Assembly (NCBI GenBank): GCA_936920195.1
Contig: CAKZHE010000068.1
Location: forward strand, 1-40,828
Direction of reading: 5' to 3'
DNA length: 40,828 nucleotides
DNA from: an uncultured cyanobacterium
Lineage (GTDB): Bacteria; Cyanobacteriota; Cyanobacteriia; Cyanobacteriales; FACHB-T130
Position 1 is the first letter of the stretch; every line of letters begins with the position of its first letter. Positions 29,707-37,138 of this stretch are shown here, piece by piece. Below the pieces are notes generated by a model. It had not been told where the DNA came from. It saw only the letters and a program-made list of their open reading frames with translations, and did no database searches. A program made the position numbers and the translations under genes.

Positions 29707-30393
29707 CTACCTATTCCCGACTAACTCCTTCAACCGATACCCCATACCGTGAACTGTCTCAATCAAATCTTCATTCGCACCCACTGATTTGAGCTTTTGG
29801 CGCAAACTGCGGATATGAACTTTAACTGTACATTCATCGGGAGGTGCTTCCAGAGACCAAACTCGCTCAATAATCACGCTGCGACTGAGTACCCGCCGAC
29901 CATTCCGCAATAGCAATTCCAAAAGACTGTACTCCTTGGGGGTTAAATGCAGTCGATTCTGAGCATAGCTCACTTCATAGGTGCTAGGGTCAAGCCGGAG
30001 ATTGCCCCATTCTAAAATGGGGGGCGAACAAACGCTACCTCTTCGCAATAAGGCGCGGATGCGAGCAAACAACTCTCCCAAATCGACAGGTTTTACTACA
30101 TAGTCATCGGCTCCGGCATCCAACCCATTAATTTTATCGGTGCTAGTGTCGCAGGCCGTCATTAGCAGTACAGGCATACTATAGCCATGCGATCGCAACC
30201 GTTGGCACAGGCTCACCCCATCCAATTCCGGCAGCATCACATCTAGCAGCATTAAGTCATAGTCCAGCACTTTGAGCCTATCCCAGCCTGTTTCCCCATC
30301 AGTGACAACATCAACCACATAGCGCTGATCTGTCAAGGCTTCTGCCAAAGTGTCCGCCAAACGCATATCATCTTCAACCAGAAGAATCCTCAT
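29707..30393 (-). CDS. ccaR: OmpR-family response regulator, CcaR-like
   Basis: A 228-residue response regulator. The receiver domain (MRILLVEDD, phospho-acceptor Asp in LLDVMLPELDG, Lys in VVKPVDLGELFARIRALLRRG) is joined to a winged-helix output domain (TPKEYSLLELLLRNGRRVLSRSVII, TVKVHIRSLRQKLKS, IETVHGMGYRL). It closely follows the sequence I remember for CcaR of Synechocystis, partner of the green-light sensor CcaS. Similar stretches are the receiver C-terminus and LDPSTYEVSY. It is divergent from pecB, with the kinase at the far end of the pec operon. The start at 30393 is preferred over the open frame to 30471, since MRILLVEDD is the canonical N-terminus. The ccaR name is supported by genomic context; ortholog phylogeny was not run. 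Confidence 0.85.
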   Translation of the reverse strand: MRILLVEDDMRLADTLAEALTDQRYVVDVVTDGETGWDRLKVLDYDLMLLDVMLPELDGVSLCQRLRSHGYSMPVLLMTACDTSTDKINGLDAGADDYVVKPVDLGELFARIRALLRRGSVCSPPILEWGNLRLDPSTYEVSYAQNRLHLTPKEYSLLELLLRNGRRVLSRSVIIERVWSLEAPPDECTVKVHIRSLRQKLKSVGANEDLIETVHGMGYRLKELVGNR

Positions 30394-30548
30394 AAACTCA
30401 GGAGTAACTTTAATATTAATGGTCTGTTCCCAGGATGCTGGGCAAAAGATTCCTTGCCAGCATCTTACCAATTCCTAGTCCTCGCCTTTGTCAAGAGTAT
30501 TTACAAATTATAACAGTAATCCTGAGAAAATTGTTGCGAATTGTAACG

Positions 30549-30578
30549 ATTTCCCATTTTCGCAATTATTTCCGATTT
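30549..30578 (+). promoter_or_regulatory. Direct repeat resembling the CcaR G-box
   Basis: Two copies of ATTTCC(C/G)ATTT occur at 30549-30559 and 30568-30578, 19 bases start to start. The remembered CcaR-binding consensus is CTTTNCNATTT; each copy matches 10 of 11 positions, differing only in the first base. They sit about 110-140 bases upstream of pecB, in the region shared with ccaR. A 7-bp inverted repeat, TTGCGAA (30534-30540) and TTCGCAA (30559-30565), overlaps them. Confidence 0.6.
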
Positions 30579-30690: not shown

Positions 30691-31209
30691 ATGCTTGATG
30701 CTTTTTCCAGAGTTGTCGATCAAGCGGACAAAAAGGGTGCTTACCTAAGCAACGACGAAATCAATGCCTTGTCAGCCATGGTCGCTGATAGCAATAAGCG
30801 CTTGGATATCGTTAACCGCCTCAACGCTAATGCTTCCAGCATTACGGCTAATGCCTACCGTGCCTTAGTTGCCGAACAGCCTCAAATCTTTGGACCTGGT
30901 GGCGCTTGCTTCCACCACCGCAATCAAGCCGCTTGCATTCGCGACTTAGGATTTGTTCTTCGCTATGTCACTTATTCAGTGCTAGCAGGGGATGCCAGTG
31001 TATTAGATGACCGCTGCTTGAACGGTTTGCGCGAAACCTACCAAGCTTTAGGAACTCCTGGCGCAACTGTAGCTTCCGGCATCCAAAAGATGAAAGATGC
31101 AGCAGTGGCGATCGCCAACAACCCTAACGGCATCACTAAAGGGGATTGTAGCACTTTAATTTCTGAATTGGCTAGCTATTTCGACCGTGCAGCTGGCGCT
31201 GTGGCCTAA
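30691..31209 (+). CDS. pecB: Phycoerythrocyanin beta subunit
   Basis: The 172-residue beta subunit of phycoerythrocyanin, a yellow-green-absorbing rod pigment protein. The PecB sequence type is clear: [23 protein letters not shown] and [20 protein letters not shown], rather than the CpcB forms. The chromophore cysteines are Cys82 (AACIRD) and Cys153 (GDCSTL), both expected to carry phycocyanobilin. Residue 72 is alanine (GGACF) where CpcB has asparagine. AGGAGA lies 10 bases before the ATG. It is first in the operon and precedes pecA by 91 bases. Confidence 0.95.
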
Positions 31210-31300: not shown

Positions 31301-31789
31301 ATGAAAACCCCTGTAACTGAGTCAATTTCAGCAGCCGATTCGCGCGGCGCTTATTTAAGCAACACAGAAATGCAAGCTATCTTTGGTCGCTTCAGCCGCG
31401 CCAAAGCTGGACTAGAAGCTGCCAGAGCTTTTGCTGCCAACAGCAAAGCTTGGTCAGAAGCTGCTGCTAACAGCGTCTATCAAAAATTCCCTTATACCAC
31501 TCAGCTGCAAGGGTCGCAATACGCTTCCACCCCCGAAGGTAAAGCCAAGTGCGTCCGCGATATCGACCACTACCTGCGGACAATCAGCTATTGCTGCGTT
31601 GTCGGCGGTACAGGCCCCTTAGATGAATATGTGATTGCTGGCTTGAGCGAATTTAACGCTGCTTTGGGACTATCTCCCAGCTGGTACGTTGCCGCCCTAG
31701 AATTCGTCCGCGACAATCATGGTTTATCTGGCGATGTGGCTGGCGAAGCCAACATCTATCTGAGCTACGCCATCAACGCACTGAGCTAG
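31301..31789 (+). CDS. pecA: Phycoerythrocyanin alpha subunit
   Basis: The 162-residue alpha subunit. Cys84 ([11 protein letters not shown]) is the site for phycoviolobilin, the isomerised chromophore made by the PecE/PecF lyase-isomerase. Adjacent Cys98 and Cys99 (SYCCVVGG) are the redox-sensitive pair described for alpha-phycoerythrocyanin photochemistry. The PecA-specific segments [13 protein letters not shown] and [14 protein letters not shown] are present. TTTAGGAGATAAATACC precedes the ATG, with AGGAGA about 9 bases away. It is followed by a strong palindrome. Confidence 0.95.
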
Positions 31790-32048: not shown

Positions 32049-32888
32049 ATGAGTCGTTTAACGGAAGACCGCTTAGGCATCAGCGCAGCGGCGGCCACCA
32101 AAATTGAACTGCGGAACAAGTGGACTGAAGACGATTTACAACAAGTATTTCGGGCTGCTTACGAACAAGTATTTGGGCGGGAAAGAGTCTATGTCGGCGG
32201 CATCTTTACTAGCGCCGAATCTTTATTGCGGAATGGCAAAATTAACGTCCGGCAATTTGTCCAAATTTTGGCCAAATCGGAATTTTACAAAGATCGGTTT
32301 TTTTATACTCAATCCCAAGTACGGTTTATTGAGTTAAACTACAAGCACTTATTGGGACGCGCTCCTTACGACCAATCAGAAATTTCTTACCACGTAGACT
32401 TGTACGCTTCTAAAGGCTACGATGCGGAAATTGATTCCTATCTCGACAGCCCAGAATACAATGATGCCTTTGGGAATGACACCGTTCCTTACTATCGTGG
32501 ATTTAGCTCCATTCCCGGCATGAAAACGGTGGGATTTAACCGTTTGTTTGCCCTTTATCGGGGACAAGGCAATAGCGATAACGCTCAGTTTGGCGGTAAA
32601 ACTTCTAAACTGCGGCAGCGAATATCGATGAATTTACCAAATGGAATTATTCCTCCCACTGGCTCGCGCAGTGCCGGAGGGACAGTAGTTGGTTCCACCC
32701 TAGGAGTATCAGAACTCCGGGGCGATGGTCGTACTTATTTGGTAGAAGCAATTGTGGGTGGGATTTCCTCAAAAGTGGCAGTGCGTCGCAGTCGGGTAGT
32801 TTATACCGTGCCATTCGATCAATTGTCTAGTAAATACCAAGAGATTCACAAGCGCGGTGGCAAAATTGTAGGGATTACCCTCGCTTAA
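32049..32888 (+). CDS. pecC: Phycobilisome rod linker for phycoerythrocyanin
   Basis: This 279-residue linker holds phycoerythrocyanin hexamers at the rod tip or interior. The PBS-linker domain occupies about residues 25-170 ([88 protein letters not shown]). The C-terminal part has a CpcD-like domain ([31 protein letters not shown]). A spaced AGGGAG lies upstream of the ATG (aaGGGAGcctaaaac). Linkers of this size fit PecC. It follows pecA after a gap filled with two palindromic repeats. Confidence 0.92.
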
Positions 32889-33123: not shown

Positions 33124-34560
33124 ATGGTGACTATGCCTGCGGCTCCTCCTCCAGAAAGAATTATTTCGGCAACTACAGCGATCGCCGCTTTAACAGGAGA
33201 TGATAATCAAACTCGCTATTATGCTGCTTGGTGGTTGGGCAAGCACCAAATCCAGGCAGCTGTTACTTTTCTCTGCGAAGCTCTTCAAGACGAACGTTAT
33301 CGCACAGAACAAGGGGGTTATCCCCTACGGCGGCAAGCGGCAAGAGCCTTGGGACAATTGAAGAATCCCCAAGCAGTTCCAGCCTTGCTAGCAGCCTTAT
33401 CTTGTCCAGAAGACCTCCGGTTGCGGGAGGCAGTGGTACAAGCTTTAGGGGCAATAGGCGATCGCCAAGCCATTCCTGCCCTCATTCAGCTGTTAAAATC
33501 TGATAGCGAACAACCCTATGAAATGTTGATTGAAGCTTTAGGCACATTGCAAGCTTGGGAAGCTCGCCCATTAGTTGAACCTTTTCTACAATATCAATCT
33601 GAGCGGGTGCAATGCGCCGCCGCCCGATATCTGTATTTATTAACCCAAGAAACTCCATATATTGAAAGAATTATCAAAAATCTCAGCCACGAAAATATGT
33701 ATTTGCGTTGGGCAGCGGCTTTTGATTTGGGAGCAATTGGGCATTTAGTCGCCGCAGAAGCAATTATCAACGCCAAAGTTGGGAATAGTCTGAAACTGTT
33801 GAATTTGAAACGAATTTTAGAAGCCGCCTTAACCAAAAACGAAACTGAAGAAACAGCTAAACCCGAAGATTGTCAGGTATTGCTCGCCGCAATCGATGGG
33901 CTAATCATCGAAAAACAACAGTTAGTAGGGGAGATTGATTGGCAACTGGAAAATTTGAACAATGTTCAGTTAATTGCTCACTTATCAAAATCTGTTAATC
34001 CTCTACAAGTAGCCGCAATTATTCAGATATTAACGGCGCGGAAAGCGACAATGGCGATCGCCGCCTTACTAGAAATTTTACACCATCACCACCCTGCCAT
34101 TTCCAACGCTGCTGTTGCCGGATTAGTTGCCCTCGCTCCAGACAGCGTTGAACCTTTAATCGCTGCCTTTGAAACTGCTCAAGATCATGGCGTACAAGCT
34201 TATATTGTCCAAGCCTTAGCCCAAATTGGTGACGAAAGATCCTTAGATCTTTTAATTAAAATTGTCGGTGTAGAAGTTGCCAATCACTGCCAAGGTACTA
34301 TCCGCCGAGTAGCAGCCAGGGGATTAGGCAAAATTGGCAGTCAATCCCAAAATCCCGCCATCATCCAGCCAGCGATAGATAAACTCAATTGGGGATTGTT
34401 ATATGCTGAAGATTGGGCTTTGCGTTATGCTGCCGCCCTCTCCTTGGGGGAAATTGGCACTAAAGCAGCGCAGACTTGTTTGCAACAGGCTTTAGCCCAA
34501 GAAACCGACGAAGTAGTTCAAATCCGCATTCAAACATCTTTAGTTGTTTGCCAAAGTTGA
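33124..34560 (+). CDS. pecEF: PecE-PecF fusion, phycoviolobilin lyase-isomerase
   Basis: A 478-residue all-helical HEAT-repeat protein. In the known pec operons, pecE and pecF are separate genes (about 250 and 210 residues) whose products attach phycocyanobilin to PecA Cys84 and isomerise it to phycoviolobilin. Here one frame carries both. The N-terminal half (about 10-235) has PecE/CpcE-like TRYYAAWWLGKHQ, GGYPLRRQAARALG and LRWAAAFDLGAIGH. The C-terminal half (about 250-478) has F-type HEAT repeats and NHCQGT at 387-392, close to the NHCQGN motif reported to be needed for PecF isomerase activity. A related fusion, RpcG, exists in marine Synechococcus. The end overlaps the ccaS frame by up to 17 bases. 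An alternative start is ATG 33133. Confidence 0.88.
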   Translation: MVTMPAAPPPERIISATTAIAALTGDDNQTRYYAAWWLGKHQIQAAVTFLCEALQDERYRTEQGGYPLRRQAARALGQLKNPQAVPALLAALSCPEDLRLREAVVQALGAIGDRQAIPALIQLLKSDSEQPYEMLIEALGTLQAWEARPLVEPFLQYQSERVQCAAARYLYLLTQETPYIERIIKNLSHENMYLRWAAAFDLGAIGHLVAAEAIINAKVGNSLKLLNLKRILEAALTKNETEETAKPEDCQVLLAAIDGLIIEKQQLVGEIDWQLENLNNVQLIAHLSKSVNPLQVAAIIQILTARKATMAIAALLEILHHHHPAISNAAVAGLVALAPDSVEPLIAAFETAQDHGVQAYIVQALAQIGDERSLDLLIKIVGVEVANHCQGTIRRVAARGLGKIGSQSQNPAIIQPAIDKLNWGLLYAEDWALRYAAALSLGEIGTKAAQTCLQQALAQETDEVVQIRIQTSLVVCQS

Positions 34561-37138
34561 AGTGATTGCCTTCATTGCCAATTTGGTTAGTCCAGTATCA
34601 ATAGCAGTCGCTTTCGGCGTGTTGGTATTGATTGCAGTTTGTTATCTGCTCAATCGAGAAGTAATTAAACGCCGACAGACTGAAGCAGTTTTGCGCCAAC
34701 AAACTGAACGGGAAAGATTGGTAACTCAGATTGCCCAACACATTCGCCAATCTTTGAATTTAGAAGAAGTATTGGTGACAACCGTGGCAGAAGTAAGGCA
34801 TTTTTTAGGATGCGATCGCGTTCTAATCTATCGCTTGTGGGAAGATGGTACTGGTAGCGCCATCACTGAAACTGTACTTCCAGATTGGCCGATTATTTTG
34901 GGACAATCTTTTCCAGAAGAAGTTTTTCCCAGAGAATATCACCAAGCCTATTCTGCGGGCAAAACCCTCGCCATTACTGATATTGAACAAGCCGAAATTG
35001 CCCTTTGTTTAGTCGGGTTTGTCAAACAGTTTGGAGTAAAAGCGAAATTAGTTGTTCCCATCCTCCAAGGAAATCACCTTTGGGGATTGCTCATTGCTCA
35101 TCAATGCCGTCAAACTCGACATTGGCAACCCCTAGAAATTGAGTTAATGAAGCAATTGGCAACTCAAGTAGCCATAGCCATTAAACAATCAGAACTCTAC
35201 GAACAACTACAAGAACTCAATTCAGAATTAGAAATGCGCGTTCAACAGCGCACCGAAGAACTAGCTCAAGCCAATAGTTCCCTCCGTCACACCAATCAAA
35301 CCCTTCAAGCCTTAATAACTGCCTCTCCCCGCGCAATTTTCACCCTTGATTTAGCGGGAAAAGTTAAAATTTGGAATCCCGCTGCCGAACGGATGTTTGG
35401 CTGGAAAGAATCGGAAGTTATCAACTGTCCTAATCCGATTATTCCCCAAGATAAACAAGAAATGTACAAGACTCTTTTTCACCGCGTACTCCAAGGCGAA
35501 ACTCTACCCACAGTAGAATCACAGCCTCTCAAAAAAGACGGTTCTCCCATTAATATTAGTTTTTCGGCGGCTCCCTTGCGGGATAGTCAAGGTAATATTG
35601 ATGGTGTAGTGGCAGTGATTGCCGATATTACCGAACAAAAACGTCAAGAAGAACAAGTGAGATTGTTGCAATCTGTTGTTCTCAATTCTAACGATGCAGT
35701 AATGATTACTGCCGCCCAACCCATTGATGAACCTGGTCCCCAAATTCTTTATGTGAACGCAGCTTTTACCCGTTTTACTGGTTATACTCCAGAGGAAGTT
35801 TTAGGCAAAACCCCTCGCATCTTACAAGGCGAAAAAACTGACCGCCAGCAACTGGATAAAGTCAAAACAGCCCTTTCTCGCTGGGAATCAATTACCGTTG
35901 AAGCTATCAACTATCGCAAAGACGGTTCTGAGTATTGGGTAGAATTTAGCATTGTCCCAGTTGCCGATAAAAATGGCTGCTATACCCATTGGATTTCGGT
36001 ACAGCGTGACATTACCGAGCGTAAACTTGCCGAACAAATTCTCCGTCAAAGTGAAGAAAGATTTCGTTCTCTAATTGAAAATGCCCTAGACATTATTACT
36101 ATTCTCGATACTGATGGTGTTGTCCTCTATGAAAGTAAATCTGTGGAAAAGGTTTTAGGTTATAATTATACTGAGTTGGTGGGAAAAAATATTTTTACCT
36201 ATATTCATCCAGAGGATATTACTACGGCGATTGATACTTTCCATAATGCTCTGCAAAATCCTGAGACTCCCCTTTCAATTGAATTTCGCTGCCGCCATCA
36301 AGACGGCTCCTGGCGAATATTAGAAGCCATTAGTCAGAAATTTATTGATTATGAGGAAGCTGCCAGAATTGTAGTCAATTCTCGCGATGTCACTGAACGG
36401 AAGCGAATGGATGAGATTCGATTAGCTTTAGAAAGAGAAAAAGAACTGAGTTTATTGAAAACTCGTTTTTTCTCGATGGCATCCCACGAATTTCGGACTC
36501 CACTCAGTACCATTCTCGCTGCATCTCAACTATTAGAACGTTGTGGTAGTGAATGGAATGAGCCGGAAAAAATTGCTCGCAATCTGCAAAGAATTCAATC
36601 TTCGGTTAAAAATATTATTCAATTACTAGATGACATTTTAACAATCAATCGGGCTGAAACTGGAAAATTAGAATTTAATCCGCAATTACTGAATTTGGAA
36701 AGATTATGTAGTTATTTTGTCGAAGAAATGCAGTTGGGCATTGAAGCCCAACACACAATTATTTTTACTGCTAGAGGAGAATGTCATCAAGCTTATTTAG
36801 ATAGTAAGTTGTTACGGTCGATTCTGGGAAATTTGCTGTCTAATGCGATTAAATATTCGCCTCAAAGTAGGAATATTAATTTTACCTTATATTGCGATTT
36901 ACAAAATGCTTTTTTAGAAATTCAAGATAGTGGAATTGGAATTTTACCCACTGATAGACAAAGGCTATTTGAACCCTTTCATCGCGGGAAAAATGTCCGC
37001 AATATTCCTGGTTCTGGTTTAGGATTGGCAGTGGTGAAAAAGTGTGTGGAACTGCATGGTGGAAGTATTGATTTCACTAGCGAGGTGGGAGTGGGAACAA
37101 CTTGGTTAGTCACGCTACCCTTAGCGCCAAAATCCTAA
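34544..37138 (+). CDS. ccaS: Cyanobacteriochrome histidine kinase, CcaS-like
   Basis: An 864-residue membrane kinase. Order: one transmembrane helix (residues 15-37), a cyanobacteriochrome GAF (about 65-220), a coiled-coil, three PAS domains (about 255-375, 380-500 and 510-630), HisKA with phospho-acceptor His648 (MASHEFRTPL), and HATPase with NLLSNAIKYSP, DSGIGI and GSGLGLAVV. The GAF has Cys155-Leu156 before KQFGVKAKLVVP; Cys is the bilin attachment site. Leu156 and Lys168, plus Glu125 or Glu126 in FPEEVFP, match the protochromic triad (Glu-Leu-Lys) described for RcaE and CcaS. No second DXCF cysteine is present. The start is uncertain: TTG 34544 overlaps pecEF by 17 bases, while GTG 34562 begins just after its stop. 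Probable partner: CcaR at 29707. Confidence 0.88.
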   Translation: MFAKVEVIAFIANLVSPVSIAVAFGVLVLIAVCYLLNREVIKRRQTEAVLRQQTERERLVTQIAQHIRQSLNLEEVLVTTVAEVRHFLGCDRVLIYRLWEDGTGSAITETVLPDWPIILGQSFPEEVFPREYHQAYSAGKTLAITDIEQAEIALCLVGFVKQFGVKAKLVVPILQGNHLWGLLIAHQCRQTRHWQPLEIELMKQLATQVAIAIKQSELYEQLQELNSELEMRVQQRTEELAQANSSLRHTNQTLQALITASPRAIFTLDLAGKVKIWNPAAERMFGWKESEVINCPNPIIPQDKQEMYKTLFHRVLQGETLPTVESQPLKKDGSPINISFSAAPLRDSQGNIDGVVAVIADITEQKRQEEQVRLLQSVVLNSNDAVMITAAQPIDEPGPQILYVNAAFTRFTGYTPEEVLGKTPRILQGEKTDRQQLDKVKTALSRWESITVEAINYRKDGSEYWVEFSIVPVADKNGCYTHWISVQRDITERKLAEQILRQSEERFRSLIENALDIITILDTDGVVLYESKSVEKVLGYNYTELVGKNIFTYIHPEDITTAIDTFHNALQNPETPLSIEFRCRHQDGSWRILEAISQKFIDYEEAARIVVNSRDVTERKRMDEIRLALEREKELSLLKTRFFSMASHEFRTPLSTILAASQLLERCGSEWNEPEKIARNLQRIQSSVKNIIQLLDDILTINRAETGKLEFNPQLLNLERLCSYFVEEMQLGIEAQHTIIFTARGECHQAYLDSKLLRSILGNLLSNAIKYSPQSRNINFTLYCDLQNAFLEIQDSGIGILPTDRQRLFEPFHRGKNVRNIPGSGLGLAVVKKCVELHGGSIDFTSEVGVGTTWLVTLPLAPKS

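What the first reader, a model, noticed from the sequence alone, without database searches (positions are those of the whole stretch)
33124..34560. Single-chain PecE-PecF lyase-isomerase in a pec operon
PecE and PecF are normally separate subunits. This gene holds both as one 478-residue HEAT-repeat protein, with an NHCQGT motif at 387-392 in place of NHCQGN. The window shows no separate pecE or pecF. The fusion may fix subunit stoichiometry or speed hand-over of the chromophore. RpcG of marine Synechococcus is fused in a comparable way but makes phycourobilin, so convergent or shared origin is an open point.
Basis: partly seen in the sequence, partly recalled or inferred. Interest (0 to 1): 0.75.

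Follow-up and report, generated by a model that had tools for sequence, protein, structure and literature searches.

The report
Fused PecE-PecF enzyme for phycoerythrocyanin pigment
In this cyanobacterium the two-part enzyme expected to attach a bilin pigment to the antenna protein phycoerythrocyanin and change its colour is encoded as one joined protein, a rare arrangement also seen in two genomes of a related family and probably arisen separately from a known joined enzyme of marine Synechococcus.

Summary
ORF 33124-34560 is one open 478-codon frame: a PecE half (58-69% to six separate PecE) and a PecF half (43-57% to five separate PecF). It follows pecB, pecA and pecC, whose subunits match solved phycoerythrocyanin best. 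The 95%-complete genome shows no separate pecE or pecF, only cpcE/cpcF. An assembly error is unlikely: two genomes of another family carry the fusion in the same cluster, under purifying selection.

The substrate is most likely PCB, giving PVB: the one bilin reductase found is PcyA, and no match passes the CpeB cut-off. RpcG-like fusions form another clade. One origin for all fusions is modestly rejected by the PecF half (p 0.023) and both halves joined (p 0.032), but not by the PecE half (p 0.505); marine-type rows were left out of these tests. NHCQGT is a minor change: HCQG is present in 23 of 23 distinct fusions.

New variant of a known kind; single-chain E/F lyase-isomerases (RpcG, MpeQ) exist. 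No activity was tested.

The parts
33124..33909 (+). PecE half of the fused lyase-isomerase (residues 1-262), with YYAAWW from residue 32
   Evidence: 58-69% identity to six separate PecE; 5n3u_A CpcE, 205 bits; apart from CpcE in the tree
33910..33960 (+). tether, about residues 263-279, where relatives have a stop codon, about 50 bp of spacer and a pecF start codon
   Evidence: in G058 (L007) pecE ends at 2283 and pecF starts at 2332 in the same frame; pLDDT under 50 at 264-279; no stop codon in the window
33955..34560 (+). PecF half (about residues 278-478) with NHCQGT at 387-392 (bases 34282-34299)
   Evidence: 43-57% identity to five separate PecF; 5n3u_B CpcF; tree
30691..31209 (+). pecB, phycoerythrocyanin beta subunit
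   Evidence: best PDB match 2c7j_B phycoerythrocyanin beta, 326 bits against 258.9 for the best phycocyanin
31301..31789 (+). pecA, phycoerythrocyanin alpha subunit, the expected substrate, with Cys84
   Evidence: best PDB match 2c7j_A, 316.8 bits against 239.4 for the best phycocyanin; Cys84
32049..32888 (+). pecC rod linker
   Evidence: PBS_linker_poly and CpcD domains; 75% to the pecC of L156 and L157
34544..37138 (+). GAF-PAS-PAS-PAS histidine kinase with a RcaE-like GAF domain (start codon not established)
   Evidence: domains; GAF matches RcaE 7ckv at 1.2e-47 with the Cys of the CL motif aligned
29707..30471 (-). OmpR-type response regulator, divergent from pecB
   Evidence: Response_reg and Trans_reg_C domains; 85-86% to the regulator in L156 and L157

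Best explanation
A single-chain PecE-PecF: a bilin lyase-isomerase that takes phycocyanobilin (PCB), isomerises it to phycoviolobilin (PVB) with its C-terminal PecF half, and attaches it to Cys84 of PecA with its N-terminal PecE half. It most likely arose when the stop codon between neighbouring in-frame pecE and pecF genes was lost, so that the spacer became a flexible tether of about 16 residues. Pairing of the halves then no longer depends on two chains meeting. Shown: one frame, both halves, operon context, no second pecE/pecF found, PcyA as the only bilin reductase found, a fusion of this kind in three genomes of two families. Inferred: route of origin, catalysis, bilin specificity, any benefit of the fusion.
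For: Both halves and no stop codon. Adjacent pecE and pecF in one frame in G058. PEC subunits upstream. No other pecE/pecF match in the genome; in G473 and G485 the fusion is the only match at E 1e-60 or better. One bilin reductase, PcyA at 362.7 bits against a cut-off of 206; none of nine CpeB-model matches over the cut-off. Window, L067 and L128 form one clade at 98/99 in the joined tree and 100/99 in the PecE half. dN/dS 0.13 window against L067; 0.14 and 0.18 in the two halves of L067 against L128. The model matches single-chain MpeQ over 377 residues, Z 25.4, tied with CpcE on the E half.
Against: No activity was measured. The window has an in-frame ATG at codon 310 with GGAAAG 7 bases upstream, so some free PecF-like chain could also be made; L067 and L128 have no ATG there. 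The genome is 95% complete, so a separate pecE/pecF, pebA/pebB or cpe genes on a missing stretch are not excluded; the CpeB control genomes gave no hit over the cut-off, so that test has no positive control. In PecF-half trees the three pec fusions are not one clade, and in the quick one L067/L128 sit near the CpcF join with weak support; one clade is not rejected (p 0.378).
Confidence: 0.87

Rival explanations
1. It is an RpcG-type PEB lyase-isomerase making phycourobilin, by descent from the same fusion as RpcG.
For: Same E-F order in one chain; RpcG is described as a pecE/F-like fusion (PMC2246261, passages). The PecE half alone does not reject one clade of all fusions (p 0.505, held tree 0.42 better; p 0.613, held tree 5.02 better).
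Against: One bilin reductase found, PcyA, against 3-4 matches in 8 of 9 genomes of the order with an RpcG-clade fusion; the ninth, G664, has 1. No CpeB over cut-off. PecA/PecB are phycoerythrocyanin. The RpcG-clade fusions exclude the window. The PecF half and the joined halves reject one clade of 12 fusions, marine-type rows left out (p 0.023, 0.032).
Confidence: 0.05
2. The fusion is a sequencing or assembly error, or a decaying gene.
For: Draft assembly of 326 contigs.
Against: L067 (Phormidium sp. LEGE 05292) and L128 (G473) carry a fusion in the same cluster. Low dN/dS in both halves. The junction is read in frame with no stop and no ATG or GTG; the nearest alternative starts are TTG 253, TTG 278 and ATG 310.
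Confidence: 0.03
3. The fusion is translated, but a second start (ATG codon 310) also gives a free PecF-like chain, so the enzyme is a mixture of fused and split forms.
For: ATG 310 with an upstream GGAAAG in the window; separate PecF proteins of only 137-151 aa exist.
Against: Not conserved: no ATG at that place in L067 or L128.
Confidence: 0.1

Closest known systems
PecE/PecF of Nostoc sp. PCC 7120 and Mastigocladus laminosus (Fischerella); their sequences as such were not fetched, relatives such as Fischerella thermalis PCC 7521 (L057) were
   Same: Operon place after pecB-pecA-pecC, both halves in sequence, HCQG motif
   Different: Here one chain with a tether; NHCQGT in place of NHCQGN
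RpcG of marine Synechococcus (identified here by fused shape, family and neighbours; no reference RpcG sequence was compared)
   Same: PecE-like and PecF-like halves in the same order in one chain; same HCQG core
   Different: RpcG is reported to act with PEB on RpcA Cys84 (PMC5318389, passages); the marine-Synechococcus-type rows have 31-35% identity to the window, another linker, and lie in another clade
MpeQ single-chain E/F lyase-isomerase (PDB 7mc4, 7mch)
   Same: Single-chain E/F fold; best whole-length structural match, Z 25.4 over 377 residues at 21% identity
   Different: Low sequence identity; reported to act with PEB on MpeA, a phycoerythrin subunit (PMC9705338, passages)
CpcE/CpcF (PDB 5n3u)
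   Same: Fold of the E half (Z 25.2 over 252 residues) and E/F order
   Different: Two chains; the CpcF-type proteins found here lack HCQG (54 of 54 distinct with under 43% identity); the window's genome carries this pair separately

Membership tests
PecE/PecF PVB lyase-isomerase | E half groups with PecE and not CpcE | tested here: met
   PecE-half tree, CpcE apart at 100; 58-69% to PecE against 45-47% to two CpcE-type
PecE/PecF PVB lyase-isomerase | F half groups with PecF and not CpcF, and carries the NHCQGN-type motif | tested here: met
   Window F half with PecF of family f32 at 90. HCQG present; last residue T. Separate PecF: NHCQGN in 62 of 65 distinct, 1 NHCQGS, 1 THCQGN, 1 with an unread first residue
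PecE/PecF PVB lyase-isomerase | encoded in a pec operon with PecA bearing Cys84 | tested here: met
PecE/PecF PVB lyase-isomerase | two separate subunits | tested here: not met
   one 478-codon frame; so filed as a fused variant, not as the two-subunit enzyme
PecE/PecF PVB lyase-isomerase | PCB to PVB activity on PecA | not testable with these tools
   PcyA as only reductase found is consistent
RpcG | lies inside the clade of RpcG-like fusions | tested here: not met
   the 19 other fusions, marine-type rows included, are one side of a branch without the window at 99 (PecE half) and 100 (PecF half); without marine-type rows 100/99
RpcG | shares its fusion event with RpcG | tested here: inconclusive
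   rejected by joined halves p 0.032 and PecF p 0.023, not by PecE p 0.505 or 0.613; marine-type rows only in the last
RpcG | host makes PEB (pebA and pebB) | tested here: not met
   one reductase found, PcyA, in a 95% complete genome
CpcE/CpcF | passes NCBIfam cut-offs | tested here: not met
   275.4 of 330 and 92.6 of 220 bits
CpeY | passes the NCBIfam CpeY cut-off | tested here: not met
   86.7 of 600 bits

The most novel reading that the evidence does not exclude
Nature has joined PecE and PecF into one chain at least twice: once on the way to RpcG (PEB to PUB) and once, independently, in a PCB-only phycoerythrocyanin operon. The second fusion goes with a change of the sixth motif residue (N to T or S in 3 of 3) and, in one lineage, loss of the N-terminal part of PecF. 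Single-chain and two-chain forms of the same reaction would then be directly comparable.
Probability: 0.65. Interest if true: 0.5.

Novelty: new variant of a known kind. Interest (0 to 1): 0.42.

Why it matters
PecE/F is a model for bilin attachment with isomerisation by two chains. A natural single-chain PCB-to-PVB enzyme would give a fixed 1:1 construct and a test of whether tethering speeds hand-over. With RpcG it is a probable case of repeated gene fusion in one enzyme family. It might also serve as a one-gene tool for making PVB-bearing fluorescent proteins (inference).

Tried and rejected
Considered and rejected: assembly error (fusion in three genomes; selection); membership of the RpcG clade; NHCQGT as a sign of lost activity (HCQG in 23 of 23 distinct fusions).

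Led nowhere or weak: the plasmid collection gave one distant hit. The whole-window count of the G-box-like pattern is no more than chance (22 found, 24.75 expected); only its place before pecB in four loci is suggestive. The quick PecE-half tree has short, weak backbone branches, and its free search missed a better tree with all fusions together, so for one or two origins I rely on the careful trees. Zhao 2017 (PMC5740638) is not held, and Hirose 2019 was seen only as a reference. The paper searches listed no paper that I could recognise, from titles, abstract starts and the passages I opened, as describing a fused PecE-PecF in a pec operon. The library lacks most subscription journals, so this does not show that it is unpublished.

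Rows dropped before counts and trees: searches left out L036, loci beyond a fixed list, and all but 14 CpcE and 14 CpcF rows; PecF rows were picked by holding NHCQG.-43 further left out 10 fusions (L033-L035, L037-L039, L112-L115) for long branches and 20 thinned loci, and kept only loci with both halves (50 rows with one Cpc outgroup; 49 without it). The first motif count took only proteins holding NHCQG; one search recounts without that filter. One search missed L065 for an unread residue.

Full report
WHAT IS THERE. The frame at 33124-34560 is open for 478 codons. By alignment its first 262 residues are PecE (58-69% identity to separate PecE of six loci, 45-47% to two CpcE-type), and its last 200 or so are PecF (43-57% to five separate PecF). 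In the PDB it matches CpcE (5n3u_A) over 15-239 and CpcF (5n3u_B) over 287-470. Upstream are pecB, pecA and pecC. PecA and PecB match solved phycoerythrocyanin (2c7j) far better than any phycocyanin (316.8 against 239.4 bits; 326 against 258.9), and PecA has Cys84.

NO SEPARATE GENES FOUND. In the window's genome (95.13% complete) the only other pair is on contig 217 (51% and 31%, cpcE/cpcF). In two further genomes with the fusion, G473 and G485, it is the only match at E 1e-60 or better. L067 (Phormidium sp. LEGE 05292) and G485 are the same contig by length and sequence, so the fusion is seen in three genomes of two families, f1 and f32.

HOW IT AROSE. In the relative G058 pecE stops and pecF starts 48 bp later in the same frame (L007). 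In the window no stop remains, and the junction has no ATG or GTG; possible other starts are TTG 253, TTG 278 and ATG 310. The model (pLDDT 87.3, pTM 0.81) is confident in both halves and low at 264-279. L067 and L128 are 444 aa and lack about 35 residues of linker and PecF N-terminus that the window keeps, so the joint differs within the group. Loss of a stop codon is inferred from this.

HOW COMMON. Of 62 named loci found with a PecF profile, 52 have a separate PecF only by motif search, 6 a fusion only (L067 in a pec operon; L096; L112-L115), 1 both (L103) and 3 neither; of the 3, L065 has a separate PecF with an unread residue. Of 388 genomes of the order searched with a fused profile, 12 have an open full-length fusion: 3 of the pec kind (G000, G473, G485) and 9 of the RpcG clade. 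In 36 others the best match at E 1e-100 or better is not an open fusion, counted by eye from the list. Seven of these 36 matched across both genes with stops; all seven have a separate PecF; in the other 29 the PecF was not checked one by one. In 388 genomes of the class the only open fusions at 1e-95 were the window and seven of one family, f34 (for G111 a TAG falls inside the aligned stretch, but its ORF is 456 aa). That f34 is marine Synechococcus is my reading from gene order. In the window's own family, 0 of 5 other genomes has a pec-type match at E 1e-30 or better; their matches are CpcE/F-like. The cluster is patchy there; transfer is possible but untested.

REAL, NOT DECAYING. dN/dS is 0.09 (PecE half) and 0.20 (PecF half) between window and L067, with dS of 1.6-1.9, near saturation, and 0.14 and 0.18 between L067 and L128.

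PIGMENT SUPPLY. One bilin reductase match is found in the window genome and in each of five searched genomes with a pec cluster and no RpcG-clade fusion (G473, G485, G058, G036, G460), against 3-4 in eight of nine genomes of the order with an RpcG-clade fusion; the ninth, G664, has 1. The window's one is PcyA. Of nine CpeB-model matches none passes the cut-off, though the control genomes hold no positive. So PCB is the most likely substrate.

TREES. Joined halves, 50 rows: the three pec fusions form a clade (98/99); nine other fusions form another (100/99); next to the pec fusions come separate PecE/F of family f32 and kin (75/94, not starred). One clade of all 12 fusions: p 0.032 joined, 0.023 PecF half, 0.505 PecE half, where the held tree is 0.42 log units better. 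With the marine-type rows in, only the PecE half was tested: p 0.613, held tree 5.02 better. The pec-fusion clade is 100/99 in the PecE half; in the PecF half it is not recovered but not rejected (p 0.378). I read this as probably two fusion events, not proven.

MOTIF. Of 119 distinct separate F-type proteins, all 65 with 43% or more identity to the window's PecF half hold HCQG and all 54 below it do not, so the motif marks PecF cleanly. Of the 65, 62 read NHCQGN, 1 NHCQGS, 1 THCQGN (a 104-aa fragment), 1 has an unread first residue. Pec fusions end in T, S, S. The other fusions end in N or K and start with N, D or T. HCQG is in all 23 distinct fusions. NHCQGN is called crucial for isomerase activity of Fischerella PecF (PMC2246261, passages).

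MECHANISM. [quoted passage not shown] The tether would hold that complex together. The best whole-chain structural match is MpeQ, a single-chain E/F lyase-isomerase (Z 25.4, 377 residues, rmsd 4.7; CpcE ties at 25.2 on the E half only). A passage says that single-chain and two-chain E/F lyases share one framework (PMC9705338). So joining the halves is compatible with the fold. Any benefit is inference.

CONTEXT. A divergent OmpR-type regulator and a downstream kinase with a RcaE-like GAF domain flank the operon, as in L156, L157 and L150. A passage says that CcaS/CcaR controls PEC in chromatic acclimation type CA7 (PMC9415938). The locus looks like a CA7 cluster (inference).

Noticed in passing
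window 34544-37138 and 29707-30471: RcaE-like GAF histidine kinase and OmpR-type regulator flank the pec operon; the same pair flanks pec in L156, L157 and L150, suggesting green/red light control (CA7).
   Followed up: partly
window about 30549-30578; L067, L157, L103 upstream of pecB: CTTTCCGATTT or ATTTCCGATTT lies 123-130 bases before pecB in four loci, like a recalled CcaR G-box; the pattern is not enriched in the whole window.
   Followed up: partly
L103 3564-6335 (= L150): Dolichospermum sp. UHCC 0259 has an RpcG-clade fusion between pecC and separate pecE/pecF in one pec operon, yet its genome (G664) shows only one bilin reductase, PcyA; what this fusion acts on is unclear.
   Followed up: partly
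L096 4799-5104, L112 4662-4994, L151 7236-7562, L152 5297-5620: A small Nif11-domain protein (101-110 aa) lies directly before the RpcG-clade fusion in four loci; the two read in full (L096, L112) end in a tail with several Cys.
   Followed up: partly
L153, L154, L158: RpcG-clade fusions occur in genomes of the window's order beside phycocyanin-like subunit genes, in L153 and L154 also with two bilin reductases, so RpcG-type enzymes may reach beyond marine Synechococcus; several fusions read DHCQGK or THCQGK.
   Followed up: partly
L103 5922-6335, L105, L108, L110, L111: Separate PecF proteins of only 137-151 aa, lacking the N-terminal part, in Anabaena/Dolichospermum.
   Followed up: no
window 33124-34560, codon 310: In-frame ATG with GGAAAG 7 bases upstream inside the PecF half, not present in L067 or L128.
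   Followed up: partly
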